Shown here piece after piece: positions 6,618-20,899 of a DNA stretch of 64,000 nt; within the stretch, counting starts at the first letter, position 1; every line of letters starts with the position of its first letter. Location of the stretch: NCBI RefSeq assembly GCF_009687865.1, contig NZ_BLAE01000031.1:45073-109072 (forward strand), in the 5' to 3' direction. The translations under genes were made by a program, and so were the position numbers. The stretch comes from Acrocarpospora macrocephala (GTDB lineage: Bacteria; Actinomycetota; Actinomycetes; Streptosporangiales; Streptosporangiaceae). Below the pieces are notes generated by a model. It was not told the DNA's origin and did no database searches. It saw nothing but the letters and a program-made list of their open reading frames with translations.

Positions 6618-8033
6618 ATGGCCGCAGGCCCGCTGGAGAGCACCGACCCGCGCACGCTGGGTGGCTTTGAGATCGTCGCCCGGTTGGGGGAGGGCGGGCA
6701 GGGTGTCGTGTACGAAGGCTGGTCGGCGGCGGGGGAGCGGGTCGCGATAAAGGTGCTCAAAGGGGGCACTGATCCGGTGACCCGGCGGCGTCTGGCCCGG
6801 GAGTTGGAGGCCGCGCGTAGCGTCGCGCCGTTCTGTACGGCCCGGGTGCTCGCCGCCGAACTCGACCGGCCTGAACCGTATGTGGTGAGCGAGTTCGTGG
6901 CTGGGCCCTCGCTGCACGATCGGGTCAAGACCGGTGGTCCGCTGCGGGATGGGGATCTGGATCGGCTCGCGGTCGGTACGGCTTCCGCGCTCGCGGCCAT
7001 CCACGCCGCCGGGATCGTGCACCGGGATTTCAAGCCGGGGAACGTGCTGCTCGGGCCGGATGGGCCCAGGGTGGTGGATTTCGGGATCGCGCGTCCGTTG
7101 GATGGGGCGACCGCGACCTCGGAGTTGGCGGGGACGCCGCCGTACATGGCGCCGGAGCAGTTGCGGGGGGTGCCGGCGTCGGCGGCGGCGGATGTGTTCG
7201 CCTGGGCGGCGACGATGGTGTTCGCGGCGACCGGGCGGGCGCCGTTCGGGCAGGACACGGTGGCTTCGGTGTTTCATCGCCTGCTGAGCGCGCCGCCGGA
7301 TCTGGCGGGGGTGCCGGAGAGCCTCCTGCCGGTGTTGCGGGATTGCCTGGCGAAGGACCCGGAGCATCGGCCGACGGCGAAGGAACTGATGATCCGCCTG
7401 GTCGACCCGACGCGAGAGTCGACCGCCGTGCTCGCACCGGATTTAACGCGATTTATTGGGACGACGGCTCCGACGGTGGTTTCGCCTACGGCCATGCTCG
7501 GGGTGAGCGATCGGCGGGTCCCCCGGCGGGCGATTGCCGCGATCGTGAGCGGGGCGGCGGTGGTCGTCGCGATCGTCGCCTTCTTCCTGATCAACCAGGG
7601 CACGACCCTGCCGTCCGGTGGCCCTTCGGAGCCGGTCGTCAGCGCGGAGACCGGAACCGAGCCGGGGACTACGTCGGAGATTACGACGGGGACTACTTCG
7701 GGGCCTGCGACGGGGACGCTGGTGTCCGGGGCGTTCGCGGGGACGTGGAAAGGAGACGTCGTCTCCCAGGACAGCCGGAAGGACACGTACGGCCTCACGA
7801 TCATCCTGGGAGAGGGTGATCGTGAGGGATACGCGATCCGGGAGAGCTGCGAGCAAGCGCTGCGAGTCACCCGGAATCGGGGCAACGCGCTCGATCTCAC
7901 CATGGAACAGCAGGGTCAGTGTGTGGGCGGGGATATCACCCTCACGTCTTCCGGTGGGGACACGCTGGTATACGAAGGGCAGGAGGGCGGCGGCTCCCTG
8001 GCGTACCGAGGAGAGCTCAGCCGCTCGTCCTAA
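6618..8033 (+). CDS. Membrane Ser/Thr protein kinase with small Cys-containing ectodomain
   Basis: 471 residues; ATG preceded by AGGAGG at the right spacing. The kinase domain is complete: GEGGQG (24-29), Lys45 in VAIKVL, HRDFKPGN (135-142), DFG (154-156), and MAPEQL. A transmembrane helix lies at about 305-326. A Thr/Gly-rich linker joins a C-terminal domain of about 105 residues (SGAFAGTWKGDV to the end) with two Cys and a beta-rich, lipocalin-like appearance. Similar extracytoplasmic domains occur behind kinases in actinomycetes, but no ligand is known to me. Its stop codon overlaps that of the convergent lipoprotein gene by three bases. Confidence 0.9.
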   Translation: MAAGPLESTDPRTLGGFEIVARLGEGGQGVVYEGWSAAGERVAIKVLKGGTDPVTRRRLARELEAARSVAPFCTARVLAAELDRPEPYVVSEFVAGPSLHDRVKTGGPLRDGDLDRLAVGTASALAAIHAAGIVHRDFKPGNVLLGPDGPRVVDFGIARPLDGATATSELAGTPPYMAPEQLRGVPASAAADVFAWAATMVFAATGRAPFGQDTVASVFHRLLSAPPDLAGVPESLLPVLRDCLAKDPEHRPTAKELMIRLVDPTRESTAVLAPDLTRFIGTTAPTVVSPTAMLGVSDRRVPRRAIAAIVSGAAVVVAIVAFFLINQGTTLPSGGPSEPVVSAETGTEPGTTSEITTGTTSGPATGTLVSGAFAGTWKGDVVSQDSRKDTYGLTIILGEGDREGYAIRESCEQALRVTRNRGNALDLTMEQQGQCVGGDITLTSSGGDTLVYEGQEGGGSLAYRGELSRSS

Positions 8034-8911
8034 CCGCCGCGAACCAGCTGGAACGCGTACGGGCCTGTCTTCGCCGAGTTCGATCGGACGATCAGCGCGT
8101 ACTTGCCGTCGCCGTTTGAGAGCGCCATGTCGAAATCCCCGCAAAGCGGGACCGGCTGGCGGGCGTTGGCGATGTTGGTGTAAGCCGCGTCCACGAGTTC
8201 CAGTTCGATCGCCGTGCACGCGCCGGTGCCGCCGACGACCTTGATGGCCGTCGCGCCGTCCGAGTCGAACTCGAAACGGTCGATTCGTCCGGGGACGTCC
8301 AGGCGTCCGGCCCCGGCGGGGCTGCCTTCTTCGATCTTCATGCCGATGGTGACCGGGAACGTGCGGGGCTTCACGGTCGCGATGCGGAAGCCGTACGGGC
8401 CGATGGTGTTGTTGTTGCCCCAGACCTCCAGCCGGTGGGTGCCCGCCTTGGTGAGCTTGAAGACCCAGGTGCCGAAGGACAGGCTGAGGTTGGGCAGGCC
8501 GACCGGTTCGTCGTCGACGTCGGAGAAGGCCTGGAACTGCAGGTCGGTGGAGCCGTTCATGTCGGCGACGTAGAACTCGCGGGCTTCGCCCAGGTCTATG
8601 ACGTACACGTCTTTCTGGCCGGCGCGGGTGAGCTCGCCGGAGACGACGCTGCCGTCGATGAGGGTTCCGCCGGGCTGGACGGTGGCCCCGGTGGTCTCCC
8701 CAGTGGTTTCCTCGGTGGGTTCGGTTGCGGGTTCGGTAGCGGTTGCGGTGGCTTCTTCGGGTTCCTGGGTGGCGACGCTGACCACTTCGGGGGCGGCCGC
8801 GTCGGTGTTCGGGGAGGTTGCGGCCGGGCCGCAACCCATCAGGGCCAGGCTGACCGCGGTCAGGGCGAGTGCGGTCTTCACCAGGCCGGAGACGGTGGGA
8901 GAGTTCGTCAT
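8030..8911 (-). CDS. Secreted lipoprotein with two PPC-like beta-sandwich domains
   Basis: 293 residues. Signal peptide and lipobox LMGC place the lipidated Cys at residue 27; a Thr/Glu-rich spacer to about 75 follows. Two units of about 100 residues then share the pattern SGxLxxxGxxDxYxxDL...YGFRI and PGRIDRFEFDSDG...PYAFQL, resembling bacterial pre-peptidase C-terminal (PPC) domains. No catalytic domain is attached, so a binding or scaffolding role at the membrane surface is inferred. Its only neighbours are the convergent kinase, with overlapping stops, and the divergent hydrolase gene 65 bases away. Confidence 0.7.
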   Translation of the reverse strand: MTNSPTVSGLVKTALALTAVSLALMGCGPAATSPNTDAAAPEVVSVATQEPEEATATATEPATEPTEETTGETTGATVQPGGTLIDGSVVSGELTRAGQKDVYVIDLGEAREFYVADMNGSTDLQFQAFSDVDDEPVGLPNLSLSFGTWVFKLTKAGTHRLEVWGNNNTIGPYGFRIATVKPRTFPVTIGMKIEEGSPAGAGRLDVPGRIDRFEFDSDGATAIKVVGGTGACTAIELELVDAAYTNIANARQPVPLCGDFDMALSNGDGKYALIVRSNSAKTGPYAFQLVRGG

Positions 8912-8976
8912 GTCCCCGATTGTGGGCAGTCCTCCTTACGGGAGGGTTGAACTCCGCTAACGGGTACCTTGGCGCA

Positions 8977-10197
8977 ATGACCGTTCTGTTGCCGGGTGTC
9001 GCGCTCAGCGACCATTCGTTCACCGTTCCGCTGGACCACGCCGACCCGGGCGGCCGGACCATCGAGGTGTTCGCGCGCGAAGCGGTCGACCCGGCGCGGC
9101 GTGGCGAGGACCTGCCGTGGCTGCTGTTCCTCCAGGGCGGTCCCGGCGGCAAGTCCCCCCGCCCCACCTCGGCGGACGGCTGGCTCGGCCACGCGCTGCG
9201 CACCCACCGCGTGCTCCTGCTCGACCAGCGCGGCACCGGCCGCAGCACCCCGGTCACCGCCCGCACCCCCGACCTGGCCGGGGAACTCCACCACTTCCGG
9301 GCCGACGCGATCGTGGCCGACGCCGAACTGATCAGGCGGCGGCTGACCGACCGGCCCTGGGACACCCTCGGCCAGAGCTACGGCGGCTTCCTCACGCTGA
9401 CCTACCTCTCCCAGGCTCCCGAAGGGCTCCGCACCTGCTACATCACCGGCGGCCTGCCCGGCCTGGACGCGACGGCCGACGACGTCTACGCGCGCACCTA
9501 CCCCCGCGTCCTGGACAAATGCCGCCGCTACCTGGCCCGCTTCCCCGCCGACGCCGCCAGGATCGAGGCCATCGCCGACCAGCTGCGCACCCACGACGTA
9601 CGCCTCCCCGACGGCGACCGCCTCACCGTGCGCCGCTTCCAGACCCTCGGCATGATGCTCGGCACCGGCGAGGGCGCGCAGCGCCTGCACTGGCTCATCG
9701 ACGAGGGCGTCACCGACGATTTCCTCCATCAGGTCATGACCGAAACCAGCTTCGCTGGCAACCCGCTCTACGCCGTCCTGCACGAATCCATCTACACCCA
9801 GGGCGCCGCCACGAACTGGTCGGCGGCCCGCCTGCTGCCCCCCGAACTCGCCGAGGACGCCGCCCCGCTGCTCTTCACCGGAGAAATGATCTACCCCTGG
9901 ATGTTCGACGACATCCGCGCCCTCCGCCCCCTCAAACCCGCCGCCGACCAGCTCGCCACCCGCGCCGCCTGGCCTCCCCTCTACGATCCGAACCGGCTGG
10001 CCGCCAACGAGATCCCCGTCTTCGCGGCCGTCTACCACGACGATATGTACGTGGACGCGGCGCTCTCCCTGGAGACCGCGCGCCGGGTGGGCAACGTGCG
10101 AACCTGGGTCACCAACGAGTGGGAACACGACGGCGTACGGGTGTCCGGCGGACAGGTTTTGGCCCGCCTCATGGACATGGCTTCCGGACGGATATAA
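8977..10197 (+). CDS. Alpha/beta hydrolase, prolyl aminopeptidase-like (peptidase family S33)
   Basis: 406 residues, no signal peptide, so cytoplasmic. The order of motifs fits the S33 proline iminopeptidase family: oxyanion segment FLQGGPGGKSP, then LLDQRGTGRST, nucleophile elbow GQSYGG, an acidic residue in the HDDMYVD segment, and His in WEHDGVR near the C-terminus. The length matches the larger actinobacterial members (about 400-430). Such enzymes remove N-terminal residues, often Pro, from peptides; the substrate here is inferred only from family. The ATG at 8977 is the first start that keeps the typical N-terminus. Confidence 0.8.
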   Translation: MTVLLPGVALSDHSFTVPLDHADPGGRTIEVFAREAVDPARRGEDLPWLLFLQGGPGGKSPRPTSADGWLGHALRTHRVLLLDQRGTGRSTPVTARTPDLAGELHHFRADAIVADAELIRRRLTDRPWDTLGQSYGGFLTLTYLSQAPEGLRTCYITGGLPGLDATADDVYARTYPRVLDKCRRYLARFPADAARIEAIADQLRTHDVRLPDGDRLTVRRFQTLGMMLGTGEGAQRLHWLIDEGVTDDFLHQVMTETSFAGNPLYAVLHESIYTQGAATNWSAARLLPPELAEDAAPLLFTGEMIYPWMFDDIRALRPLKPAADQLATRAAWPPLYDPNRLAANEIPVFAAVYHDDMYVDAALSLETARRVGNVRTWVTNEWEHDGVRVSGGQVLARLMDMASGRI

Positions 10198-10207
10198 CCC
10201 CGGAAAG

Positions 10208-10240
10208 GCGATAAATCCTCATATCGTTGGGCTAAGATCG
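10208..10240 (+). promoter_or_regulatory. Upstream element shared with the second DUF574 gene
   Basis: The stretch contains CTCATATCGTT followed by GCTAAGATCG, about 30 bases before the methyltransferase ATG. A closely similar arrangement (CCTATATCGC then CTAAGATTGG) precedes the paralogous methyltransferase on the other strand at 15315-15347. It is probably a shared promoter or operator; by-eye alignment only. Confidence 0.4.
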
Positions 10241-10271
10241 TCAGCGAACGTGTTGAGGGTTTGGGGGATCG

Positions 10272-11078
10272 ATGGAATTCGAGCAGGCACCCACGGGGAT
10301 CGACCCGAACATTCCGAGCGTCGCCCGGATGTACGACTTCTTCCTCGGCGGCAAGGACAACTTCGCCTCCGACCGGGCCGCGGCCCAGAAGATCATCGAG
10401 CTCACTCCCAACGTCCGCGAGGGAGTCCAGGCCAACCGCCGTTTCCTCAGCCGCGCCGTCAACTTCCTCACCGGGACCGGTATCCGCCAGTTCCTCGACA
10501 TCGGCGCCGGCCTCCCCACTCAGGAGAACGTGCACCAGGTCGCCCTCCGCGCCGCCTCCGACTCCCGGATCGTCTACATCGACAACGATCCCATCGTGCT
10601 CGCCCACGGCCGCGCCCTGCTCGCCGACAACCAGCAGACCATCGTCCTGGACGGCGACCTCCGCGAACCCCTCGCCATCCTCAAGGACCCCCGCGTCAAC
10701 GCCCACCTCGACTTCACCCGTCCCGTCGGCGTGCTCCTGCTGGCCGTCCTCCACTTCATCCCCGAAGACGACCTGGCCGAGACCATCGTGCAAACCCTCC
10801 GCGACCACCTCGCCCCCGGCAGCGCCATCGTCATCAGCCACCTCTCCTACGGAGACCTCGACGAATCCCAACTAGCCGAAGGCACCGCCGTCTACACCCG
10901 CACCACCGCCGGCGCCGTCCGCCCCCGCTCCCACACCCAAATCCTCAACTTCTTCAACGGCTTCACCCTCGTCGACCCCGGCCTAGTCTCCACCGACGAC
11001 TGGCGCCCCGACCCCTCGTCCCCCCGCCTCCCCCTCCTCCCGGGCGTAGACGGCTTCAGCGGCGTCGGCCTCCTCTAA
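10272..11078 (+). CDS. SAM-dependent methyltransferase, SAV2177/DUF574 family
   Basis: 268 residues, the normal length for this actinomycete-specific family (PF04672). The N-terminal signature PSVARMYDFFLGGKDNFASD is diagnostic. The SAM-binding region follows, with FLDIGAGLPT as glycine-rich motif I and IVYIDNDPIVLAH as the acidic loop after strand 2. The acceptor substrate of the family is not established. It is convergent with, and clearly paralogous to, the gene at 14470-15291 (most residues between the MYD motif and the LDGDLREP motif match). The ATG has GGGG upstream. It ends 10 bases from the stop of the NACHT gene. Confidence 0.9.
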   Translation: MEFEQAPTGIDPNIPSVARMYDFFLGGKDNFASDRAAAQKIIELTPNVREGVQANRRFLSRAVNFLTGTGIRQFLDIGAGLPTQENVHQVALRAASDSRIVYIDNDPIVLAHGRALLADNQQTIVLDGDLREPLAILKDPRVNAHLDFTRPVGVLLLAVLHFIPEDDLAETIVQTLRDHLAPGSAIVISHLSYGDLDESQLAEGTAVYTRTTAGAVRPRSHTQILNFFNGFTLVDPGLVSTDDWRPDPSSPRLPLLPGVDGFSGVGLL

Positions 11079-11088
11079 CTCCCACCGA

Positions 11089-14000
11089 TCAGGTCGGCCA
11101 GACAAGGCGGTAGCGTCCGCCGTCGGCGCGGATGATGCGGCGGGCGCGGTGGAACAGATGCGGATGTTCGCGTTCGATGCCGATCAGCTCGTCCGCGCGT
11201 AGTCGGCGGACGACATCGAAGGCGGTCGCTGGGACTTCGGACGGGTCAACGTCCAACTCCATGAGCGTTACCGCCGCCTCCAGGTATAACCAACCGGGGA
11301 GGGGGAGTTCGTAAAGGACCCGACCGAGGAGTTCTAGATAATCACGGTCGCGTGCCACCAGGTAAAGGGCACATGTGACCAGGTAGTCTCCCTCGCCCAC
11401 AATGATGGGGTCGAGGCTTACCAGCGGCAATGCCTGAATCAGAAGAGCGGACGCTTCCGGCGCGGTTAAGTTTCGCAGATCCTCAAAGAGACGGATTAAC
11501 ACCTCGCGAAGGAAATGCTCGCGTGGTAATCGTCCAATCCGGGAGATCATCTCGAAGACGCGAGCGTAGGCCTCTGTGAGCGGGGGGTGGTCGACTGGAT
11601 AGATCTGCTTGTCGGGGAGCCGTAGATCGTTAAAAGCGGTGAACAGGGAAGTTGAGGCCCCGTCGCTGGTGCTGGCGATGGAGGTCACCGCGTAAGGCAT
11701 GGAATGAAAGATAGGGGTGAAGATTTCCGCATTCACGGATCGGCCGGCCCCGGTGTCGAGCATGGTGTGAGCGGGAAGTGCCCGCCACTGCCGAGGATCG
11801 GCGGTTGGGGGCTTGTTGTGCGCCCATGCCAGTGGGTCCTGGGTTTCCCATATGACATCGCGGGTGGTCTGGAGTTCTCCCACCTTGGATCGGTAGCTCA
11901 CGGGAAGCACCTGGTGTGAGCCCGTCCAATACACGGTCAGCACTCTCCTGTCCCCGTCCCACGAACGGGCGATTCCCAGCGCGGATACCATGCTGGGCCA
12001 CTCATCGTGATGCATCCCGGCCCGCCAGAGATCGACCAAGTGCTGCCAACGCCACACCGCCTCGGCATCGGGGCCGAACAACTCTGCGGCGGTCACCGGT
12101 CCCGTCAGGACCGTGGTCAGCAGGACAAGGTTGGCGGTCTGCCGGGCGATGCGCTGGATCGCCGACAAAGCCATGGGTTCATAGTTCGAGCGGGTCAGTT
12201 CGGTGCCGAAGTAGATTTCCTGGAACTGGTGCTGGAGAAACGGCCTCAGGTTCTCGCCCGGTTCGGAGATGTTGATCAGGAACTCCGGGATCGACGCGCG
12301 GACCGACAGGACGGCGAACGACAGCAGGGCACCCAGGGGCCTCCGATCGGGACGCGGGCTGAATATCCCGCCCAGGATGCCTTCGTGATCGTGTATCTCT
12401 CGCGCGGCTCCCTCGCGCAGCAGATCCCGGACCAAGCGCGCGATCAGATATTCACCGAAGGTGGCGTGCAGGAATTCATAGGTGCTTAGCTCATTGGAAT
12501 CCTGGAGCGCCAGTGCCTGGTGCATGAAAAAGAACCGGCCGATGACCGTCTGGGCCGCAGTCAGCGGACGCTGGAAGCCCACTCCGGGAGTCGGAGGGTC
12601 GGGGATCAACGCGGTGAGGTCTCGATCCAGGTCATCGTGGGTGACCCACTGCTGACCTCGATTGAACATGGCGAACGCGGCCACTGAAAGCCGGAGTAAC
12701 TCCCGTTCGATCGCCGCCTCGCGCCGGGCGGGGGAAAGGCTGGGTTCGTGCTTGTCGACCTCCCGGGCGGCGAAACCGTGCAGCAGGCGCTCGTACAACT
12801 CGCCGAGGCTGAGTCCACTCGCTTCGTGCAAGGCTCCCTTGGATGTCGGCGTTGGACCGGTGGCCGAGTCGGCGTCGTACAGCGCGAGCATCAGCAGGAG
12901 CAGTGGTTGCTCGGCAAGTTCACGGTGCGCAAGCACGTCGTCATATGCAAGCGGCTCACGGCCGGTCGAGGCGAAATGAGTGGCGTTGGTGCTGTTCCAG
13001 GTGTCAATCCACAATTTCACCTGGTCGTCGGAGAACGGCTCCAGCTTTACGGCGACGGTTCCGCCGGGCAAGCGGCAGCGGTCGGCGACGGCCGTCCGGG
13101 TGGTGACGATCACGGCTACCGGGCGGCCGAGCTCGGCTTCGCGGGTCTGGAATTCGGCGGCCTGGACGAGATAGTCGGCTCGATTGACGCCGGTCGCCTG
13201 GAGTAGTTCGTCGAGGCCGTCCAGAAGGACAATCGGGAGGGCACCGTCGGCGGAGCGAGACAGTTCGGGCCAATTCAGTGTTTCACCAGTGGCGACGCGG
13301 ATCGCCGCCTCGATCTGCTCCTGGATTCCGGCGTCGGCGGGGACCTGGCGGAGCGGAACGCGGATCGGCAGGAAATCCCCAGCGGGGAGACGAGCGGCGA
13401 GCACTTGGGTGAGTACGGACTTCCCCACGCCCGGCTGGCCGAGAACCAGCAGTGGCGAACGGGTAGCGGCCATCGAGGTCACGAACCCGGCCAGCATCTG
13501 CTGGAGGTCGTCCCGGATCGGCTCGGCCGCCCAGGACTCCTCCAGGCTGAGATCCTCCTGTCCGGTAATGACGCGAAATCGTGGGTTGACGTATCCATCG
13601 GCGAGGGTGGGCAGGGCCAGGTTCCCCGGCCGGTCTTTGGTCGGGCTGATCGGGCGGGCAAGGGCCGCGTGGTTCAAGGCAAGGATGCTCCGCAGTTGGG
13701 GAGGCGGGACCCGGCCGGAGGTGATGGCGGCGAGCATGGAGTTCAGGCCGCCGAGCCCGTGGCGGATCTGCTCCTGAGTCTCGTGATGTTCGCGTTGGTA
13801 CGCCCAGAAGGCGAACTCGGGGAACTCGATGGCGAGCTGGCGGTACATCTGCTCGTAGCGGTCTGCGGCGAAGCGCGGCAACCGGTAGATCTCCCGCTGC
13901 GCCCGGTCCTTCTCAGTCGAATTGAGCTCTTCCCAAACGGCCAGACCGGCGATGAAGGCTATCAACGAATCGCAGGCGAGAGAGTAGGCCTTGTGCTGGC

Positions 14001-14460
14001 GGCGGAACAGTATTCCCGCCGCGATCTCGGACATCGGGATGCCGTCTGACGATTCCAACGGGAAACGCAGCGCGGCACGCCGGGGCTTGCCCGCGGAAAA
14101 GATCGCGCTCTTCTCGGCGTAGGTGAGGTCCAGGCGCTTGAGACTGAAGGGCACCTCGATGTCATCGAGGGCTTCGAAGAACGCGGTCGTGATGATGATC
14201 GTGTGTGCCGCGTGCAAACGTTCCGTTCTCGTGTAGCGGCTGGTACCGGTGACCTTCTCACGGAGCGAGCCAATGAGCTGGTGGCCTAGCCGTACCGCCT
14301 CGGTCTTGGCGTCGAACAAGCTGAGCGCGACCCCGCTCGTCCCCGGGATCATGGCCGCTCCCAGGAGCAGGCCGCCGAAAGCTCGATCCAGAGCCTGGAG
14401 CGTGCGGGTTTCGCCCCCCAGCACCCGGACCGCTTCCCCATAGCTGAACTGCATCGTCAC
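11089..14460 (-). CDS. NACHT-domain STAND NTPase, candidate bacterial immunity protein
   Basis: 1123 residues. An alpha-helical N-terminal region (1-300) resembles the NACHT N-terminal helical domains of actinobacterial proteins. The NTPase core follows: Walker A GQPGVGKS (341-348), Walker B/NACHT box IVLLDGLDEL (about 410-419), a VIVTTR sensor, and the STEFLH-like STAND motif (YEFLHATFGEYLIAR) near residue 680. The C-terminal 430 residues are helical without recognisable LRR, WD40 or TPR repeats. Bacterial NACHT proteins are known anti-phage sensors; that role here is inferred. Start: GTG at 14460 lies five bases after GAGGAG; an ATG at 14454 is an alternative. It starts 9 bases after the stop of the methyltransferase gene, suggesting an operon. 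By eye the region looks less GC-rich than its neighbours. Confidence 0.85.
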   Translation of the reverse strand: MTMQFSYGEAVRVLGGETRTLQALDRAFGGLLLGAAMIPGTSGVALSLFDAKTEAVRLGHQLIGSLREKVTGTSRYTRTERLHAAHTIIITTAFFEALDDIEVPFSLKRLDLTYAEKSAIFSAGKPRRAALRFPLESSDGIPMSEIAAGILFRRQHKAYSLACDSLIAFIAGLAVWEELNSTEKDRAQREIYRLPRFAADRYEQMYRQLAIEFPEFAFWAYQREHHETQEQIRHGLGGLNSMLAAITSGRVPPPQLRSILALNHAALARPISPTKDRPGNLALPTLADGYVNPRFRVITGQEDLSLEESWAAEPIRDDLQQMLAGFVTSMAATRSPLLVLGQPGVGKSVLTQVLAARLPAGDFLPIRVPLRQVPADAGIQEQIEAAIRVATGETLNWPELSRSADGALPIVLLDGLDELLQATGVNRADYLVQAAEFQTREAELGRPVAVIVTTRTAVADRCRLPGGTVAVKLEPFSDDQVKLWIDTWNSTNATHFASTGREPLAYDDVLAHRELAEQPLLLLMLALYDADSATGPTPTSKGALHEASGLSLGELYERLLHGFAAREVDKHEPSLSPARREAAIERELLRLSVAAFAMFNRGQQWVTHDDLDRDLTALIPDPPTPGVGFQRPLTAAQTVIGRFFFMHQALALQDSNELSTYEFLHATFGEYLIARLVRDLLREGAAREIHDHEGILGGIFSPRPDRRPLGALLSFAVLSVRASIPEFLINISEPGENLRPFLQHQFQEIYFGTELTRSNYEPMALSAIQRIARQTANLVLLTTVLTGPVTAAELFGPDAEAVWRWQHLVDLWRAGMHHDEWPSMVSALGIARSWDGDRRVLTVYWTGSHQVLPVSYRSKVGELQTTRDVIWETQDPLAWAHNKPPTADPRQWRALPAHTMLDTGAGRSVNAEIFTPIFHSMPYAVTSIASTSDGASTSLFTAFNDLRLPDKQIYPVDHPPLTEAYARVFEMISRIGRLPREHFLREVLIRLFEDLRNLTAPEASALLIQALPLVSLDPIIVGEGDYLVTCALYLVARDRDYLELLGRVLYELPLPGWLYLEAAVTLMELDVDPSEVPATAFDVVRRLRADELIGIEREHPHLFHRARRIIRADGGRYRLVWPT

Positions 14461-14469
14461 AGGAGCTCC

Positions 14470-15291
14470 TCAGCGGGTGATCGTGCCGACGCCTCCCAGA
14501 ACATAAGGCTTGGCGGTGTCCATTCGTGGGGGAACGGGGTGGTCTGGGCGCCAGTCGTGGACGGGGACGAGGCCGGGGTCGAGGAGGGTGGTGCCGGTGA
14601 AGAAGTTGGTGAGGCAGGTGAGGGAGCGGTCGGCGGCGGGGCCGGTGGAGGTGCGGGCGTAGATGGCGCGGCCTTCGGCGCGTTCGGCGGGGGGCATGTC
14701 GCCGGCGTAGATGTGGGTGATCACGATGTGGCTGCCCGTGGGGAGGGCGTCCCGCACGTGGGCGACGACCGCGAGGGCGTCGCGGTCGGAGGTGATGAAG
14801 TGCAGGACGGAGAGCATCAGGGCGGCTGTCGGGAGCTCGGGGTCGAGATGGGCGAGCAGTTCGGGGTGGTCGAAGATGGATTTGGGCTCGCGGAGGTCGC
14901 CTTCGATGGCGATGGTCCGGGGGTTGTTGGCCAGGAGGGCGCGGGCGTGGGCCAGGACGACCGGGTCGTTGTCGACATATACGACTTTGGCGTCGGGGGC
15001 GAGGCGCTGGGCCACCTCGTGGGTGTTCTCCCGGGTGGGCAGGCCGGCGCCGATGTCGATGAACTGGCGTACGCCGGTCTTGGTCAGGTGTTCCACGGCT
15101 CGGCGCAGGAATGCCCGGTTCTCGCGAGCGAGTTCGCGTACGCCGGGGACCAGCCGGATGACCTCCTCGGCCGCCTCGCGGTCCGCGCTGAAGTTGTCCT
15201 TGCCGCCGAGCCAGTAGTCGTACATCCGCGCGACACTGGGAACAGCGGGGTTGAGCCCCGGTGGCACCTCGCCCGATTCGCTCAACGTCAT
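14470..15291 (-). CDS. SAM-dependent methyltransferase, SAV2177/DUF574 family, upstream of the NACHT gene
   Basis: 273 residues from the ATG at 15291, the start that gives the family length; a TTG at 15318 would add nine residues. Family signature PSVARMYDYWLGGKDNFSAD, motif I FIDIGAGLPT and acidic loop VVYVDNDPVVLAH are all intact. Paralogue of the gene at 10272-11078. The stop is 9 bases before the NACHT start, so the two are probably cotranscribed, making the methyltransferase a possible partner or a passenger of the NACHT protein. Substrate unknown for the family. Confidence 0.88.
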   Translation of the reverse strand: MTLSESGEVPPGLNPAVPSVARMYDYWLGGKDNFSADREAAEEVIRLVPGVRELARENRAFLRRAVEHLTKTGVRQFIDIGAGLPTRENTHEVAQRLAPDAKVVYVDNDPVVLAHARALLANNPRTIAIEGDLREPKSIFDHPELLAHLDPELPTAALMLSVLHFITSDRDALAVVAHVRDALPTGSHIVITHIYAGDMPPAERAEGRAIYARTSTGPAADRSLTCLTNFFTGTTLLDPGLVPVHDWRPDHPVPPRMDTAKPYVLGGVGTITR

Positions 15292-15314
15292 GCTCCTCGA
15301 CCCCTGGACGGAAG

Positions 15315-15347
15315 CCAATCTTAGAGCGATATAGGCGATATATACGC
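15315..15347 (-). promoter_or_regulatory. Upstream element shared with the first DUF574 gene
   Basis: On the minus strand this reads GCGTATATATCGCC, then TATATCGCTCTAAGATTGG, immediately before the methyltransferase. It matches the layout of the element at 10208-10240 (ATATCG followed by CTAAGAT). Probable promoter or operator common to the two paralogues. Confidence 0.4.
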
Positions 15348-15362
15348 GCTGGCGGGGTGGCT

Positions 15363-15995
15363 TTAGGTCGTGAGGATTCTGGCGGATTCGGATTCGTGGG
15401 CGAGGCGGCGGATGGTGTCCAGGACCCGGCCGTACATGACGGTGCCGATGATGAGGGCTTCCACGGTGGTTTCGCGGGGGGCGTCGAAGGGGATTTGGTG
15501 GATTTCGTGGGTCTGGACCAGGGTTTGGGCGGCGGTGGCGTACGGGATGAGGTCGGCGAGGGTGGGTTCGGAGCCGAGGCGGCGGAGAGCGACGATGGTT
15601 TGGGCTAGTTCTTCGCGGGCGGGGGCATTGGGTTCGATCTGCCAGTCGTAGGCGGCGATGAGTTGGTCGACCATCTCGCGGGCTTCCTGCCAGTCGGGGG
15701 TTTCCTCGTGGGGTTCGACGCCGGGGCTGAGGGCGTAGTGGGCGGTGCCGAGCATCTTGTGCACACCGAGGGTCTCGTCGTCGACGGCGTCGATCACTTT
15801 GCGGATGGCGGCGACGGGGAGGCGGCCGACCTCCAGGAGGGCGCGGATCAGGCGCAGGCGGCGCAGGTGGGTCTGGCCGTATTCGGCGCGGGTGGCGGAG
15901 GTTTGCTCGCCTTGGGGGAGGAGGCCTTCGCGCAGGTAGTACTTGATGGTCGGGATGGGCACCCCGGATTCGGCGCTGAGCTGGGAGATCCGCAT
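15363..15995 (-). CDS. MerR-family transcriptional regulator
   Basis: 210 residues. The N-terminal 70 residues are a MerR winged helix: MRISQLSAESGVPIPTIKYY then LREGLLP, with LRRLRLIRALLEVG as the second helical unit. The C-terminal 130 residues form a helical effector region seen in actinomycete MerR regulators of unknown ligand. No Cys-rich metal-binding loop is present, so a metal sensor is unlikely. It is the last gene of the minus-strand series 15995-11089, but 70 bases separate it from the methyltransferase start, which has its own promoter-like element. The target is unknown. Confidence 0.85.
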   Translation of the reverse strand: MRISQLSAESGVPIPTIKYYLREGLLPQGEQTSATRAEYGQTHLRRLRLIRALLEVGRLPVAAIRKVIDAVDDETLGVHKMLGTAHYALSPGVEPHEETPDWQEAREMVDQLIAAYDWQIEPNAPAREELAQTIVALRRLGSEPTLADLIPYATAAQTLVQTHEIHQIPFDAPRETTVEALIIGTVMYGRVLDTIRRLAHESESARILTT

Positions 15996-16029
15996 ACCGA
16001 AGAGGGTACCTGTGGATTAGACAGCAATG

Positions 16030-16995
16030 CTATCCAACTGGAGATCTTTGCCAGAATGACGCGGCGATCAGTTCGGCGATCAGGGTTTCGGTGAGCAGGG
16101 CCACGTCGGGGTCGTCGTCGTGGCGGTAGCGGATCGACGCCTTTTGTCCGGGGAGTTCGCCGCCCACCGTCAGGACCGTCGATTCGCGCTGGCGAATCCA
16201 CTCCATCGCCTGGTCGTCGTAGCGAGAGCCGGGGAAGAACAGGGCGCGGTAGTCGTAGGTCTTGGTGAGGTAGACGTCCACGTGTGACCAGTCTCCGGTC
16301 TCGCAGGCGTCGGCCTGACGCCGTGGGCCTTCCCGGAACATCAGCGCCGACTGCTGCGCGGAGGACAATCGCTCGGCGGGTGCGATCGTGTACACGCCAT
16401 GCGGCCCGTCCAGCAGCGAGATCGCCTGATCCAGCCACGCTCCCCGCCGATCGAGCAGATCAGCACTGGCCTCCGCCACCCGCCGCACAAGTCCCGAAAT
16501 ATCGCCACCTGTCCCCGTCAACCGATCAACGAGCCCCAGCAGCAAAGCCAGCGTGTGCTGAAATGTCCGGCAAGCGACGCCACCGTTCTCCGCCCCGGCC
16601 AGCATCGGCGCCACCACATCCGCGCCCTCCGCGACCGCCGACTCAACCTGGTTGGTCACCGCGACCACCCGCGACCGCCCCCGATACCGCGCCACCGCGT
16701 CCAGCGTCTCCCGGCTCCCTCCAGACGCCGAAATCGCCACAACCAACGTCGACGCATCAGCCGGATACCCCCCAGCCGCCGAGGCATACTCCGCCACCGC
16801 GTCAATCCCCGCCACCCGCAACCGCAGCGCCGCCACCCCCGCCGCGTACCGGGAACTCCCCATCCCCAAGAAGACAACCCGCCGCACATCCAACGGCACC
16901 CCACCCAGGAGATCACCCCCATCCCACGCATCGGCAAGCGCGAACAGCGCCTCAGGCTTCGCTTCCAAATCAGCCAAATACAACGCCGCGTCCAT
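16030..16995 (-). CDS. SIS-domain sugar-phosphate isomerase/deaminase-like protein
   Basis: 321 residues with two SIS units. The first shows VVFLGMGSSRYAAG and VVAISASGGSRETLDAV, the phosphosugar-binding Ser/Thr loop of GlmS/AgaS-type proteins. The second (170-320) is more diverged. The glutaminase domain of GlmS is absent, so a glucosamine-6-phosphate deaminase or isomerase role is the nearest reading. It starts 15 bases after the stop of the maltokinase-like kinase gene, so the pair is an operon and probably acts on the same amino sugar: kinase first, then deaminase (inference). Start ATG 16995 is preceded by GAAAGG. Confidence 0.75.
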   Translation of the reverse strand: MDAALYLADLEAKPEALFALADAWDGGDLLGGVPLDVRRVVFLGMGSSRYAAGVAALRLRVAGIDAVAEYASAAGGYPADASTLVVAISASGGSRETLDAVARYRGRSRVVAVTNQVESAVAEGADVVAPMLAGAENGGVACRTFQHTLALLLGLVDRLTGTGGDISGLVRRVAEASADLLDRRGAWLDQAISLLDGPHGVYTIAPAERLSSAQQSALMFREGPRRQADACETGDWSHVDVYLTKTYDYRALFFPGSRYDDQAMEWIRQRESTVLTVGGELPGQKASIRYRHDDDPDVALLTETLIAELIAASFWQRSPVG

Positions 16996-17010
16996 CAAGG
17001 GCCTTTCGAT

Positions 17011-18084
17011 CTAGAACCAGGTGCGGAGGACGCCCATGGGGGCGTAGCGCCAGCGGGGGAGGTGGTGGGCGGCGTAGAGGAGTTCGCGGCATTCCTGTTC
17101 GATCTCGAAGGGGCGCAGGAGTGAGCGATCCAGGAGCTCTGACTGTCCGGCTTCCGCCAATTTCGTGACATAGGCGGTTTCGAGGGCTTCGCGGGTCATC
17201 CAGGACCATGCGGCCATCGCCTGGGGATCAGCCCCGCGCCGCTTCACGGCCACCTGGGCCACATGCTCAAGGCTGGTGGTCAGCTGGGCGAGATCCCGAG
17301 CCACCGGCTGGTACGGCAAAGCCCCCGAAACCGTCGGATTCCCATCAAAATCCACGATCGCCAACCCATCCCGCCACCGCAGCACCTGCCCCACATGCAG
17401 ATCCCCATGAACACGCACCACCGGCGTCTCCCCGGCCACCGCGAGCGGCGCGAGCTCACGCCGGAGATCCCCCTCATGCGCGGCCAGCCACGCCGAATCC
17501 TCCGCGTCCTCGGTCACCCGAAGCGCCTCACCCAGCGCCTCGAACGCCCGCCCCGCCCACGACGCCTCCGCCACCCGCACAGGATCCGGCAACACACTCG
17601 ACGGCGTCGCCAGCGCGACATGCAACTCCGCCGCCATCCGCCCGAGCTCGCCCGCGAAAGCCGTACCCCCCGAAACGGCCTCATCGACGCACCACTCCCA
17701 GCCATCCCTGGCCTCGGGCAGGTATGCGGTCACCAGCGCCAGCAGCTCATCCCCGCAGAACACCGCCGCGTACGGCTCCGCGATCGCCCGGAACCCCACC
17801 TCCGCCAGATGCGCGAACAACTCAGGCGCGGGCGAATCATCAGAAGGCCTCGCAAACCACTTAACCACTACGGTTTCACCTACGATCACCGAGTGGTTTG
17901 TCTGATCGGCCGGAATCACCCGTTCCCCGGCCGGGATGGGCGGAAGGGGACGCATGCTCCGTACGACGAAAGGATCCGGCGGATCCAGCAGGGTGCGCAG
18001 GAGCGTCTCCGAGAGGCCCGGTTCGATCGGGCGTCCCGGGATCAGGGTGGCCGTCGCCGACAGCCGCCACCGTGGAGTGTCCAC
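17011..18084 (-). CDS. Maltokinase-like sugar phosphotransferase, possibly glucosamine kinase
   Basis: 357 residues from a GTG at 18084 with AGGAG six bases upstream. The C-terminal lobe carries the aminoglycoside-phosphotransferase-type catalytic loop VHGDLHVGQVL and the metal-binding DFDGNP. Maltokinases usually read DFEGEP at the second site; the DFDGNP form and the smaller N-terminal domain fit the actinobacterial glucosamine kinases described in recent years (from memory). Cotranscription with a SIS-domain protein supports an amino-sugar substrate. The other reading is maltokinase (Mak) of the GlgE pathway, but no treS or glgE is nearby. Confidence 0.65.
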   Translation of the reverse strand: MDTPRWRLSATATLIPGRPIEPGLSETLLRTLLDPPDPFVVRSMRPLPPIPAGERVIPADQTNHSVIVGETVVVKWFARPSDDSPAPELFAHLAEVGFRAIAEPYAAVFCGDELLALVTAYLPEARDGWEWCVDEAVSGGTAFAGELGRMAAELHVALATPSSVLPDPVRVAEASWAGRAFEALGEALRVTEDAEDSAWLAAHEGDLRRELAPLAVAGETPVVRVHGDLHVGQVLRWRDGLAIVDFDGNPTVSGALPYQPVARDLAQLTTSLEHVAQVAVKRRGADPQAMAAWSWMTREALETAYVTKLAEAGQSELLDRSLLRPFEIEQECRELLYAAHHLPRWRYAPMGVLRTWF

Positions 18085-18205
18085 GCCTACTCCTGAACGT
18101 CGCTTCAACAAGAAACACAAATGTAAAGCTCACCGTGCCCAGCAAAGTCTTGTCTAAGTTGAGTTCTCCTGCAACACTCGCGAATCATCAGGAAGGGAGC
18201 GCCGC

Positions 18206-19099
18206 TTGTCCGGAAATCTCACGAAGGCTTCGGAGACTTCCCGGAGGCCGCCAGGCTGGGGAAGGGCCGCCGCGGCGGTGTTCTTCCTGGCGCCCGGACT
18301 GACCGCCCTGATCGTGCTGGCCATCGTGCCCATGATCTTGATGCTGACCTACATGTTCTTCCCGCGAGGACGCTTCGGCGGGGTCGTCTACGAGTTCACC
18401 CTGGAGAACTTCGCCCGCCTCAACGACCCCCTCTACCTGGGCGTGATCGGCGACTCGCTCGTCATCGCCGGCCTGGTCACCCTGATCGCGCTGCTGATCG
18501 GCTACCCGACCGCCTACGCGATCGCGCAACTGCCGCCGCGCTGGAAGACCATCGCCCTGGTGGCGATCATGCTGCCGTTCTGGACGAACTTCCTGATCCG
18601 CATCTACGCCTGGATCGTGCTGCTGTCCGGTCCTGGCCTGGTCAACGACGCGCTCACCGGGCTCGGGCTGGTCGACGAGCCGCTGGAGCTCCTCTACAAC
18701 GAGGGCACGATCGTGCTCGGCCTCGTCTACGGCTACCTTTCGCTCATGATTCTGCCGATCTACTCGGCCGTGGAGAAGCTCGATCCCCGGCTGCGTGAGG
18801 CGTCCGCCAACCTGGGCGCGAGCCCGTTCCGCACGTTCCTCAGCGTGACGCTGCCGCTGACACTGCCCAGCGCGCTGATTGGCGCGGTGCTGGTGTTCGT
18901 GCCCAGCTTCGGCAATTACGTGGTGCCGGAACTGCTCGGCGGCGGAAAGGCGATCATGGTGGGCAACATGATCAGAGACCAGTTCCTCAAGGCCCGCGAC
19001 TGGCCGTTCGGCGCGACGCTGGCTTTGGTCATGATTGTTTTCACGTTCGTGCTGCTCATCGCCCAGGCCGTGGCCTCCAGGAGGGTGCGCAATGCGTAG
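18206..19099 (+). CDS. potB: Polyamine-type ABC transporter permease 1
   Basis: 297 residues, starting at TTG 18206 behind GGAAGGGAG. Six transmembrane segments. The EAA loop reads LREASANLGASPFRTFLSVT, ending in a conserved Leu-Pro. It matches the PotB/PotH family of spermidine/putrescine permeases in length and in the VPSFGNYVVPELLGG segment typical of them. First gene of a potBCA operon: the stop overlaps the potC start (ATGCGTAG). No periplasmic binding protein gene precedes it, which is unusual. Substrate is inferred from the oxidase and dehydrogenase genes downstream. Confidence 0.85.
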   Translation: MSGNLTKASETSRRPPGWGRAAAAVFFLAPGLTALIVLAIVPMILMLTYMFFPRGRFGGVVYEFTLENFARLNDPLYLGVIGDSLVIAGLVTLIALLIGYPTAYAIAQLPPRWKTIALVAIMLPFWTNFLIRIYAWIVLLSGPGLVNDALTGLGLVDEPLELLYNEGTIVLGLVYGYLSLMILPIYSAVEKLDPRLREASANLGASPFRTFLSVTLPLTLPSALIGAVLVFVPSFGNYVVPELLGGGKAIMVGNMIRDQFLKARDWPFGATLALVMIVFTFVLLIAQAVASRRVRNA

Positions 19100-19868
19100 G
19101 CGGAACCTGGGCGTCTACGTGCCGCTCTGGCTGACGTACGTGTTCTTCTACGCGCCGATCGTGGTCATGGTGGTGATGTCGTTCAACTCCAGCGACTCGC
19201 CGTTCGGCTTCGACGGCTTCAGCCTGAAGTGGTACGGCGCGCTGGCCGAGAACGACAACGTGCTGCGCGGCCTGGTCAACACGCTGATCGTCGCGGTGGG
19301 CACGACGGTGATCGCCACGGTCGTCGGCACCATGCTCGCCGTCGGCCTGGCCCGCTACACCCGGTCCAAGATCCTGGACGCGCTGGCCACCCTCCCGGCC
19401 ATCCTGCCGGAACTCATGCTCGCGGTCGGGCTGCTCATCTTCTACTCCACCGTGCGGTTCACCCTCGGCCTGCACTCGATCCTGCTGGCCCACCTGACGT
19501 TCGGCATCCCGCTGGTCGCCGTCGTCGTCCGGGTCCGCCTGGCCTCCATGGACATGTCCCTCGAAGAGGCCTCCCGCGACCTGGGCGCCGGCCCGATCCC
19601 CACGTTCCTGCGGATCACGCTGCCCGGCCTGATGCCGGGCGTGGCCGCCGGCGCGCTGCTGGCGTTCACCTTCTCCCTCGACGAGTTCGTGCTCGCGTTC
19701 TTCACCGCCGAGCCGACCGAACCGACGCTGCCGATCGTGATCTACTCCATGATCCGCTTCGGCGTGACCCCCGACATCAACGCCCTGGCGACGATCCTGC
19801 TGGTGGTCAGCTTCACCGCCGTGATCGCCGTCCAGCGGATGACCCGACTGACGGAGTCGTTCAAATGA
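19092..19868 (+). CDS. potC: Polyamine-type ABC transporter permease 2
   Basis: 258 residues; ATG at 19092 overlaps the potB stop. Six transmembrane helices, opening VYVPLWLTYVFFYAPIVVMV, with EAA loop LEEASRDLGAGPIPTFLRIT and the FTFSLDEFVLAFF segment characteristic of PotC/PotI. It pairs with PotB to form the membrane channel. Its stop overlaps the ATPase start (AAATGA), so the three genes are translationally coupled. Confidence 0.87.
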   Translation: MRRRNLGVYVPLWLTYVFFYAPIVVMVVMSFNSSDSPFGFDGFSLKWYGALAENDNVLRGLVNTLIVAVGTTVIATVVGTMLAVGLARYTRSKILDALATLPAILPELMLAVGLLIFYSTVRFTLGLHSILLAHLTFGIPLVAVVVRVRLASMDMSLEEASRDLGAGPIPTFLRITLPGLMPGVAAGALLAFTFSLDEFVLAFFTAEPTEPTLPIVIYSMIRFGVTPDINALATILLVVSFTAVIAVQRMTRLTESFK

Positions 19869-20899
19869 CGCTGCTTTCCATCGAGGGAGTGTCCCGGAAG
19901 TTCGGGGACGTCGTCGCTCTTTCCGATGTCACGCTCGACATCAAGGCGGGGGAGTTCTTCGCCCTGCTCGGGCCGTCGGGGTGTGGCAAGACCACGCTGC
20001 TGCGCATCCTGGCCGGCTTCGAATGGCCGGACCGCGGCAACGTCCGCCTCGACGGCGCCGACCTGCTGCGCCAGCCGCCGCACCGGCGGCCGGTCAACCT
20101 GATGTTCCAGTCCTACGCGCTGTTCCCGCACATGACCGTCGCCAAGAACGTCGCGTACGGCCTGGAGCGCGAGGGCCTGCCCCGCGCCGAGATCAAGACC
20201 AGGGTCGGCGAGGTGCTGGAGAAGGTCGGCCTGGACACGATGGCCGGGCGGCGGCCCGCCCAGCTGTCCGGCGGCCAGCAGCAGCGGGTCGCGCTGGCCA
20301 GGGCCATCGTCAAGCGCCCCCGCATGCTGCTGCTGGACGAGCCGCTGTCCGCGCTGGACAAGAAGGTCCGCGCGGAGATGCAGCTGGAGCTCAAGCGGCT
20401 CCAGCACGAGGTCGGCATCACCTTCGTGGTCGTCACCCACGACCAGGAGGAGGCGATGTCCCTCGCCGACCGCATCGCCGTCATGGACAACGGCCTGATC
20501 GAGCAGGTCGACGCCCCCATCGCCCTCTACGACCGGCCGCGCACCCGGTTCGTCGCCGACTTCATCGGCGCCAATAACCTCTTCACCGGTACGGTCACCG
20601 CCGGCGGCTTCGAAGTCCCGGGCCTCGGCCCGCTGCCCTGCAAGACCGACCTGCCCAACGGGATCGCGGTCCTGGCCGTGCGCCCCGAGCGGGTCCGGCT
20701 CGGCGACCCCGGACGCGGTGCCGCCGACGGAACCGTGGTCGACGTGAGCTTCTTCGGCGGTATCTCGCACATCGCGGTGGACGTGCCGGGACATGACCGG
20801 AAGGTGCTGGTGGCCACGCAGGGGTCGGCGCGGATCGCCCCGGGCGCGGCGGTCGGGCTGTTCTGGAACCCGGACGACGCCGTGCTCGTGCCCGCGTAG
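19865..20899 (+). CDS. potA: Polyamine-type ABC transporter ATPase
   Basis: 344 residues. Walker A GPSGCGKTT (36-44), signature LSGGQQQR, Walker B MLLLDEP, D-loop SALD and switch His in VVVTHDQEEAMSLADR are all present. The C-terminal 110 residues are a TOBE-type regulatory domain, as expected of PotA and related importer ATPases. It ends three bases before the stop of the convergent TetR gene. Confidence 0.9.
   Translation: MTLLSIEGVSRKFGDVVALSDVTLDIKAGEFFALLGPSGCGKTTLLRILAGFEWPDRGNVRLDGADLLRQPPHRRPVNLMFQSYALFPHMTVAKNVAYGLEREGLPRAEIKTRVGEVLEKVGLDTMAGRRPAQLSGGQQQRVALARAIVKRPRMLLLDEPLSALDKKVRAEMQLELKRLQHEVGITFVVVTHDQEEAMSLADRIAVMDNGLIEQVDAPIALYDRPRTRFVADFIGANNLFTGTVTAGGFEVPGLGPLPCKTDLPNGIAVLAVRPERVRLGDPGRGAADGTVVDVSFFGGISHIAVDVPGHDRKVLVATQGSARIAPGAAVGLFWNPDDAVLVPA

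What the first reader, a model, noticed from the sequence alone, without database searches (positions are those of the whole stretch)
11089..15347. DUF574 methyltransferase-NACHT ATPase operon as a candidate immunity module
A complete NACHT STAND ATPase (Walker A at residues 341-348, NACHT box near 410-419) starts 9 bases after a SAV2177-family methyltransferase gene. Bacterial NACHT proteins are established anti-phage sensors; a methyltransferase partner has not, to my knowledge, been described. The C-terminal 430 residues carry no recognised repeat, so the sensor domain could be new.
Basis: partly seen in the sequence, partly recalled or inferred. Interest (0 to 1): 0.75.

Follow-up and report, generated by a model that had tools for sequence, protein, structure and literature searches.

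The report
Lone bacterial NLR-like gene, swapped alleles
The gene is a bacterial relative of animal NLR immune sensors; the methyltransferase gene in front of it looks like a passing neighbour rather than a conserved partner, but the sensor gene itself appears to have been exchanged for a very different version while everything around it stayed nearly the same.

Summary
A 1123-residue NACHT ATPase starts 9 bases after a DUF574 methyltransferase gene (MT1), with intact Walker A (341-348) and Walker B (LDGLDE, 413-418). The module idea does not hold. DUF574 lies directly upstream on the same strand in 3 of 106 surveyed NNH7-NACHT loci, all in Acrocarpospora (3 of its 5 genomes). This genome has 20 DUF574 matches. 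At related sites DUF574 pairs with a MerR gene where no NACHT is present (6 of 19 sites). MT1 forms its own clade. Most likely this is a stand-alone NLR-like sensor that currently sits behind MT1's promoter. The unexpected result is its evolution. Between this genome and A. pleiomorpha, NACHT dS is 0.77 while every other matched neighbouring ORF is at most 0.26. Divergence starts at the NACHT start codon and ends at an identical 77-bp block over the last codons. That points to replacement of the gene body by a divergent allele at a fixed site. Herbidospora shows a weaker excess; three other genera show none in the median. Immunity was not tested.

The parts
11089..14460 (-). NNH7-NACHT STAND ATPase, 1123 aa (GTG 14460; ATG 14454 also possible)
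   Evidence: (PF22738 219 bits; PF05729 22.3 bits)
13789..14451 (-). NNH7 N-terminal helical domain, residues 4-224
   Evidence: variable stretch at residues 118-160
13201..13440 (-). core of NACHT domain: Walker A 341-348 to Walker B/NACHT box 413-420
11311..11940 (-). fast-evolving C-terminal stretch, residues 841-1050 (28-54% identity to the four other Acrocarpospora, against 76-84% in NACHT 331-500)
11087..11163 (-). 77-bp block identical to A. pleiomorpha over the last NACHT codons, the stop and 2 bases beyond: 3' edge of the divergent segment
14470..15318 (-). MT1, DUF574/Methyltransf_19 (PF04672) SAM methyltransferase gene; likely ATG start 15291
15296..15347 (-). promoter-like block before MT1 (TATATCGCTCTAAGATTGGCTTCCGTC at 15307-15333; -10-like TAAGAT), largely kept in 3 of 3 species that have MT1
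   Evidence: not picked up by the sigma-70 consensus scan
10272..11078 (+). MT2, second DUF574 gene, convergent with NACHT, next to an alpha/beta hydrolase gene
15363..15995 (-). MerR-type regulator gene, relatives (E 1e-20 or better) in 138 of 200 family genomes
16030..16998 (-). SIS-domain gene; GC3-matched control for dS
17011..18120 (-). gene without a Pfam match at E 0.01, labelled 'APH' in my scripts by eye; GC3-matched control for dS

Best explanation
The locus holds a stand-alone NNH7-NACHT STAND ATPase, built like the bacterial NACHT proteins and animal NLRs. A fast-changing C-terminal part (about 841-1050, followed by a helical array) most likely senses a trigger, the NACHT core switches with ATP and oligomerises, and the N-terminal NNH7 domain carries the output. 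Shown: the domains, the motifs and the predicted fold. Inferred: sensing, oligomerisation, output and any role against phage. The DUF574 gene in front is not a conserved partner. It supplies a promoter-like block and a stop/ribosome-binding overlap in three Acrocarpospora species, so NACHT is probably co-expressed with it, but its enzyme activity need not belong to the NACHT function. The NACHT gene sits at a fixed chromosomal site, and in the lineage of this genome or of A. pleiomorpha its body was replaced by a divergent allele, most simply by homologous recombination through conserved flanks.
For: NNH7 and NACHT motifs; NLR fold as best PDB match. DUF574 directly upstream in 3 of 106 loci, 0 of 6 more outside the family; 20 DUF574 matches in the genome, one partial; DUF574-MerR without NACHT at 6 of 19 sites; at least three DUF574 lineages. 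In G133 the NACHT lies between ThuA and MerR; the corresponding genes are neighbours in G044, G058, G087 and G112. Allele replacement: own against A. pleiomorpha NACHT dS 0.77; the 27 other matched ORFs (some are antisense shadows; rows whose GC3 was not the highest of the three positions were dropped) 0.00-0.25, and the 11 named flanking genes 0.05-0.26. pS is 0.32-0.68 in 22 windows along the gene and 0 in the last. The 5' edge is at the start codon and the 3' edge is a 77-bp identical block. GC3-matched SIS (0.79) and APH-like (0.78; NACHT 0.78) have dS 0.13 and 0.18. NACHT dS is above every compared flanking gene in 10 of 10 Acrocarpospora pairs and 9 of 10 Herbidospora pairs.
Against: The NACHT DNA tree still joins this genome with A. 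pleiomorpha (96/97), as the flanking genes do (100/100), and the protein AU test does not reject that clade (p 0.289). So a donor from outside the pair is not shown, only an excess of divergence. For the three other pairs with this genome the excess over the two GC3-matched genes is modest: 0.76 against 0.49-0.59 (A. phusangensis), 1.01 against 0.45 (A. corrugata), 1.30 against 0.76-0.92 (A. catenulata). NACHT is above all flanks in only 4 of 26 rows in g4, 3 of 12 in g40 and 0 of 6 in g52, so this is not a rule for NNH7-NACHT genes. Function in defence is untested. Pfam NACHT is below its cut-off.
Confidence: 0.6

Rival explanations
1. A two-gene immune module: MT1 modifies a host or phage molecule, or makes a signal, that the NACHT protein senses, and the pair is a defence unit.
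For: Nine-base spacing, overlapping stop and ribosome-binding sequence, and a shared promoter-like block in 3 of 3 species with MT1. MT1 is under purifying selection (dN/dS 0.14-0.36). DUF574 homologues have solved structures; PMC2954221 (passages read) lists SAM in 2qe6 and SAH in 3go4. MT1 has a weak match (17.2 bits, E 4.5e-4) to mad2, a protein of a known defence system.
Against: 3 of 106 loci only, one genus; absent in 2 of 5 Acrocarpospora. MT1 has not diverged as NACHT has: dS 0.11 against 0.77. DUF574 also lies next to MerR at sites without NACHT; those examined in the tree are of other lineages than MT1.
Confidence: 0.1
2. The NACHT protein is not a phage sensor but a self/non-self (allorecognition) or developmental switch of these filamentous bacteria, like NACHT proteins in fungal incompatibility (recalled, not tested).
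For: Found near the same MerR, SIS, APH-like and ABC genes in 5 of 5 Acrocarpospora (A. catenulata rearranged, A. corrugata with extra genes) and in 5 Herbidospora genomes; divergent alleles at one place; no clear defence neighbours.
Against: No function data. Two further genomes of the same genus code as Herbidospora (G109, G148) have the site without NACHT. Fixed sites with variable alleles also suit phage pressure.
Confidence: 0.2
3. The high dS reflects no exchange at all but relaxed codon constraint or a locally high mutation rate in the NACHT gene.
For: NACHT GC3 is lower than the flank median (Acrocarpospora 0.79 against 0.91; Herbidospora 0.85 against 0.93), while in g4 and g52, where it is about equal, there is no excess in the median. 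NACHT topology agrees with the flanks.
Against: SIS and APH-like have the same GC3 as NACHT but dS 0.13 and 0.18 for the key pair. The change is abrupt at both gene ends.
Confidence: 0.2

Closest known systems
Bacterial NACHT (bNACHT) proteins, e.g. bNACHT25 (PMC12169576, passages read)
   Same: Three-part plan with N-terminal effector, central NACHT, C-terminal sensor, as that paper describes it; best PDB folds of our model are NACHT NLRs.
   Different: NNH7 in place of the PD-(D/E)XK nuclease of bNACHT25; the C-terminal region has no Pfam match. Phage protection untested here.
Pfam NNH7 (PF22738) NACHT proteins
   Same: E 1.2e-64 over residues 4-224, well above the cut-off; found in 86 of 200 genomes of the family.
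   Different: The C-terminal part beyond residue about 880 aligns with Acrocarpospora, Herbidospora and a few other loci only; most stop at 820-880 of the query.
NLRC4 / NLRP3 / NOD2 (animal NLRs)
   Same: NACHT and following helical domains, Z about 12-14 over about 340-390 residues.
   Different: No Pfam LRR match; N-terminal domain matches NNH7, not CARD or PYD; 14-18% identity.
DUF574 / SAV2177 methyltransferases (PF04672; 2qe6, 3giw, 3go4)
   Same: MT1 and MT2 score 295 and 299 bits; MT1 matches 2qe6 at 3.8e-58.
   Different: Substrate unknown; neighbours at related sites are MerR or an alpha/beta hydrolase.

Membership tests
NACHT clade of STAND NTPases | Walker A GxxGxGK[ST] | tested here: met
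   GQPGVGKS 341-348
NACHT clade of STAND NTPases | Walker B with extra acidic residues (D-G/S-x-D-E) | tested here: met
   LDGLDE 413-418; D414, G415, D417 and E418 invariant in 14 sequences; motif rule recalled
NACHT clade of STAND NTPases | NACHT-NLR fold | tested here: met
   model pLDDT 71, pTM 0.54; best PDB matches NLRC4, NLRP3, NOD2
NACHT clade of STAND NTPases | Pfam NACHT profile above cut-off | tested here: inconclusive
   22.3 bits against 26.7, E 1.2e-4
NNH7-NACHT family | PF22738 above cut-off at the N-terminus | tested here: met
   219 bits against 27
Anti-phage bNACHT system | Protects cells against phage | not testable with these tools
   needs an experiment
Anti-phage bNACHT system | PADLOC model match | tested here: inconclusive
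   the NACHT protein has no match at E 0.1 in the 2023 library; absence from a library is no proof
MADS defence system (considered because of PADLOC matches) | mad gene set in one operon (recalled) | tested here: inconclusive
   MerR matches mad1 (29.6 bits), MT1 mad2 (17.2), ABC ATPase mad3 (113.9) and mad8 (46.7), kinase 6618-8033 mad6 (179). These look like shared generic domains: the ATPase is a TOBE-type ABC transporter subunit, the kinase matches many kinase models, and the genes lie on both strands among others
Conserved DUF574-NACHT module | DUF574 gene beside NACHT homologues across genera | tested here: not met
   directly upstream in 3 of 106 loci, one genus; 0 of 6 other-family loci
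DUF574 methyltransferases (MT1, MT2) | PF04672 above cut-off | tested here: met
   294.8 and 298.9 bits against 26
DUF574 methyltransferases (MT1, MT2) | SAM-dependent methyl transfer | not testable with these tools
   homologues hold SAM/SAH in crystals per PMC2954221; activity needs an assay

The most novel reading that the evidence does not exclude
In Acrocarpospora and Herbidospora this NNH7-NACHT gene is a recognition locus with exchangeable alleles: a fixed chromosomal site where only the NACHT reading frame is swapped, start codon to last codons, between strongly divergent versions, kept diverse by phage pressure or by self/non-self recognition in filamentous colonies, as with polymorphic NLRs of plants and fungi. 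In A. catenulata a stub of the last 23 codons near MT2, with an intact copy 16-20 kb away, would be a footprint of such turnover.
Probability: 0.25. Interest if true: 0.7.

Novelty: new member of a known kind. Interest (0 to 1): 0.45.

Why it matters
It closes a tempting lead (a methyltransferase-NLR module) by showing that at related sites the methyltransferase genes come and go independently of the NACHT gene. It also points to a bacterial NLR-like gene that seems to diversify by whole-allele exchange at one fixed place. If confirmed, this would give natural allele series for finding what such sensors recognise.

Tried and rejected
Ideas rejected. (1) MT-NACHT module: no association outside one genus. 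(2) MerR-DUF574-ThuA-NACHT as a four-part module, suggested by G133: MerR relatives are in 138 of 200 family genomes and DUF574-MerR occurs without NACHT at 6 of 19 sites. (3) MT1 as orthologue of the Herbidospora or G133 DUF574 gene: it forms its own clade; deeper relations unresolved. (4) Defence island: PADLOC on 10 proteins (9 window neighbours and one ThuA from L053) gave kinase, MerR, ABC and hydrolase matches that I read as generic, with mad models among them (see Membership tests). (5) Membrane-active N-terminus: a hydrophobic stretch at 31-49 (mean 1.72) is no higher than a stretch elsewhere in the same protein (1.82). (6) Known fold for residues 690-1123 alone: no PDB match under E 0.001; the model is poor in most of its first 270 residues. 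(7) Shared promoter motif with other DUF574 genes: only loose matches in the 19 loci searched (17 from this genome, 2 from other Acrocarpospora). (8) sigma-70 scan found no promoter in 10900-18400.

Limits. Literature: 'NACHT' + 'DUF574' found 0 papers; 'NACHT', 'methyltransferase', 'NNH', 'conflict systems' (at least 3 of 4) found 3, seen as listing, one of them (PMC8195603) also as passages; PMC7159879 was read as passages, with 0 hits for 'methyltransf' and 'NNH'; some searches were seen as listings; NACHT with recombination, allelic and other terms found 1 paper, seen as listing. The library lacks most subscription papers, so no claim of absence from print is made beyond these searches. 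One search scored only 12 candidates a genome, so its per-genome counts are lower bounds; one search scored at most 13. In one search, 2 of 106 loci (L108, L174) had no NACHT gene call; one (L174) had no NACHT match at E 1e-20. Both counts gave the same three loci. The 106 loci are places I chose's list plus nearly all fuller-length relatives met later and 8 named loci; several genomes give more than one locus. The 19 MerR sites were picked by me. Gene calls in scripts are by codon-position GC, not by a gene finder. In one search pairs with under 4 flanking genes at 55% identity or more were dropped; tandem copies are counted apart. In one search one row is identical to another (the same A. 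corrugata gene seen twice). In Herbidospora L113/L047 the NACHT frame is broken in two.
Full report
What is there. The window lies in a 12.1-Mb actinomycete genome; its nearest named relatives for this gene are four Acrocarpospora species, and five genomes of its genus are held. The NACHT gene is 11089-14460 (-) and MT1 is 14470-15318 (-), nine bases apart. Walker A is at 341-348 and Walker B at 413-418. Pfam adds an N-terminal NNH7 domain (219 bits) and a NACHT match below cut-off (22.3 against 26.7 bits). A predicted model (pLDDT 71, pTM 0.54, 14 sequences) matches NLRC4, NLRP3 and NOD2 best among solved structures. A second DUF574 gene, MT2 (10272-11078, +), faces the NACHT gene from the other side.

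Is DUF574 a partner? NNH7 occurs in 86 of 200 sampled genomes of the family, DUF574 in 200 of 200; this genome has 20 DUF574 matches, one of them partial. In 106 loci around NNH7-NACHT genes, DUF574 lies directly upstream on the same strand in 3: this genome, A. pleiomorpha and A. corrugata; 14 loci hold a DUF574 gene anywhere in the stretch held, mostly 20 kb. Ten of these 14 are Acrocarpospora or Herbidospora; the others are L053, L090, L129, L163 and L177 less one, that is, 4 Acrocarpospora, 5 Herbidospora and 5 others. None of 6 further loci from other families has it within 1.5 kb. A. phusangensis has MerR directly before NACHT; A. catenulata has other genes there.

To state that count plainly: of the 14 loci with DUF574 in reach, 4 are Acrocarpospora (own, L039, L040, L041), 5 are Herbidospora (L113, L116, L121, L122, L127) and 5 are others (L053, L090, L129, L163, L177). 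The preceding 'ten' should be read as nine.

What DUF574 does go with. Near this locus it often sits beside a MerR gene. Of 20 regions fetched, 19 hold the MerR gene and none of these shows a NACHT match; 6 of the 19 have a DUF574 gene directly beside MerR on the same strand. G133 and G044 share a site (glutamine synthetase, ThuA, MerR, DUF574), and only G133 has NACHT between ThuA and MerR. MT2 is next to an alpha/beta hydrolase gene in 4 of 5 Acrocarpospora (not in A. corrugata, whose next genes differ), and a DUF574 gene is so placed in G051. A tree of 38 DUF574 proteins puts MT1, the G133/G044 type and the Herbidospora/G051 type in separate clades (100/100, 100/99 and 99/94); MT2 joins the last only weakly (88/89).

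Expression. Before MT1 a block TATATCGCTCTAAGATTGGCTTCCGTC is largely kept in all three species, including A. corrugata, where MerR is over 1 kb away. It looks like a promoter with a -10-like TAAGAT or TAGTAT, though a sigma-70 scan does not call it. Co-expression of MT1 and NACHT is therefore likely in these three species. In Herbidospora a ThuA gene on the other strand lies before NACHT, so NACHT very likely has its own start there.

Allele replacement. Between this genome and A. pleiomorpha, 11 named flanking genes have dS 0.05-0.26 and NACHT 0.77. A scan of matched ORFs of at least 120 codons in the shared stretch gives 28 rows, some of them antisense shadows of the same genes, after rows whose third codon position was not the most GC-rich were dropped; NACHT is the only row above 0.25. 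pS is 0.32-0.68 in 22 windows along NACHT and 0 in the last. The alignment turns divergent at the NACHT start codon and is identical over 77 bp at its end. SIS and the APH-like gene have NACHT's GC3 but dS 0.13 and 0.18, so codon composition does not explain it. A. catenulata keeps a 23-codon stub of NACHT (83% identity) near MT2, while its intact NACHT lies 16-20 kb away on the same contig.

How general. NACHT dS exceeds every compared flanking gene in 10 of 10 Acrocarpospora, 9 of 10 Herbidospora, 5 of 6 g65, 12 of 15 g30, 16 of 26 g46, 4 of 10 g9, 4 of 26 g4, 3 of 12 g40 and 0 of 6 g52 rows. Median ratios to the flank median are 2.58, 3.49, 2.23, 1.74, 1.36, 1.30, 0.87, 0.98 and 1.01. Pairs within a genus share branches and are not independent. 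In Herbidospora dS is highest at NACHT in 7 of the 10 pairs or close to it in the rest, with raised values in genes on either side; a 144-residue gene two places away reaches 0.69-0.88 in pairs with L113 or L116.

Against it. The NACHT DNA tree still groups this genome with A. pleiomorpha (96/97), as do the flanks (100/100), with path 0.48 against 0.046; the protein tree is unresolved and does not reject the pair (p 0.289). No donor is known. For the three other pairs with this genome the excess over the two GC3-matched genes is 1.3-2.2 fold only. Baseline genes come from one 23-kb stretch, as no more sequence could be fetched.

Mechanism. By analogy with bacterial NACHT proteins (PMC12169576, passages), the C-terminal part senses, NACHT oligomerises and the N-terminus acts. 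The stretch 841-1050 changes fastest (dN/dS 0.35-0.55 against 0.12-0.20 in NACHT, this genome against three species), as expected of a sensor. Structure prediction of 690-1123 alone gives confident helices after about 960 and no significant known fold. NNH7's output is unknown; I commit to an effector or adaptor role at moderate confidence.

Other systems. PADLOC gives matches to mad1, mad2, mad3, mad6 and mad8 models among MT1 and the neighbours. I read these as generic MerR, methyltransferase, ABC ATPase and kinase similarities, since the genes lie on both strands and the ATPase carries a transporter TOBE domain, but this was not tested further.

Verdict. Ordinary in kind (an NNH7-NACHT protein), with a partner assigned that does not hold up, but with a sharp, testable sign of allele exchange.

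Noticed in passing
window 15363-15995; L230, L231, L241, L243, L244, L245: A DUF574-MerR pair, in five of these six sites with a convergent ThuA-like gene beside MerR, recurs without NACHT at 6 of 19 MerR sites fetched; looks like a conserved small gene cluster.
   Followed up: partly
L079, L093-L098, L102, L104-L107, L109, L110, L112, L114, L115, L117-L120, L124, L126, L128, L130, L165-L169, L171, L172: In these 32 loci of other genera a uracil-DNA glycosylase gene lies upstream of NNH7-NACHT on the same strand (at -1 in 23, within -4 in all 32); a SIR2 gene faces NACHT from downstream in 21 loci of a partly different set.
   Followed up: partly
L049, L050, L079, L093-L098, L100, L101, L104, L109, L112, L119: Tandem pairs of NNH7-NACHT genes, one copy often lacking the first ~40 residues of the alignment.
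   Followed up: no
L162 about 7888-7956: A 23-codon stub of the NACHT C-terminus (83% identity) near MT2 in A. catenulata, whose intact NACHT lies 16-20 kb away.
   Followed up: partly
L040 13325-15192: A. pleiomorpha has about 1.9 kb between NACHT and MT2, with a TetR-like ORF (by eye) and another ORF facing it; in this genome only 10 bases lie there.
   Followed up: no
window 8869-20899 and MT1: PADLOC matches to mad1, mad2, mad3, mad6 and mad8 models among MT1 and the neighbours, probably generic domains.
   Followed up: partly
window 60949-63963 (-): nSTAND1-WD40 protein (PF20703, 1e-85), a second STAND NTPase in the window.
   Followed up: no
window 59365-60453 (-): LuxR-type regulator with an AAA_16 ATPase domain.
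   Followed up: no
window 33459-35525 (-): DUF6571 protein, 689 aa.
   Followed up: no
window 38799-41075 (-): Animal-type haem peroxidase fused to a cellulose-binding domain.
   Followed up: no
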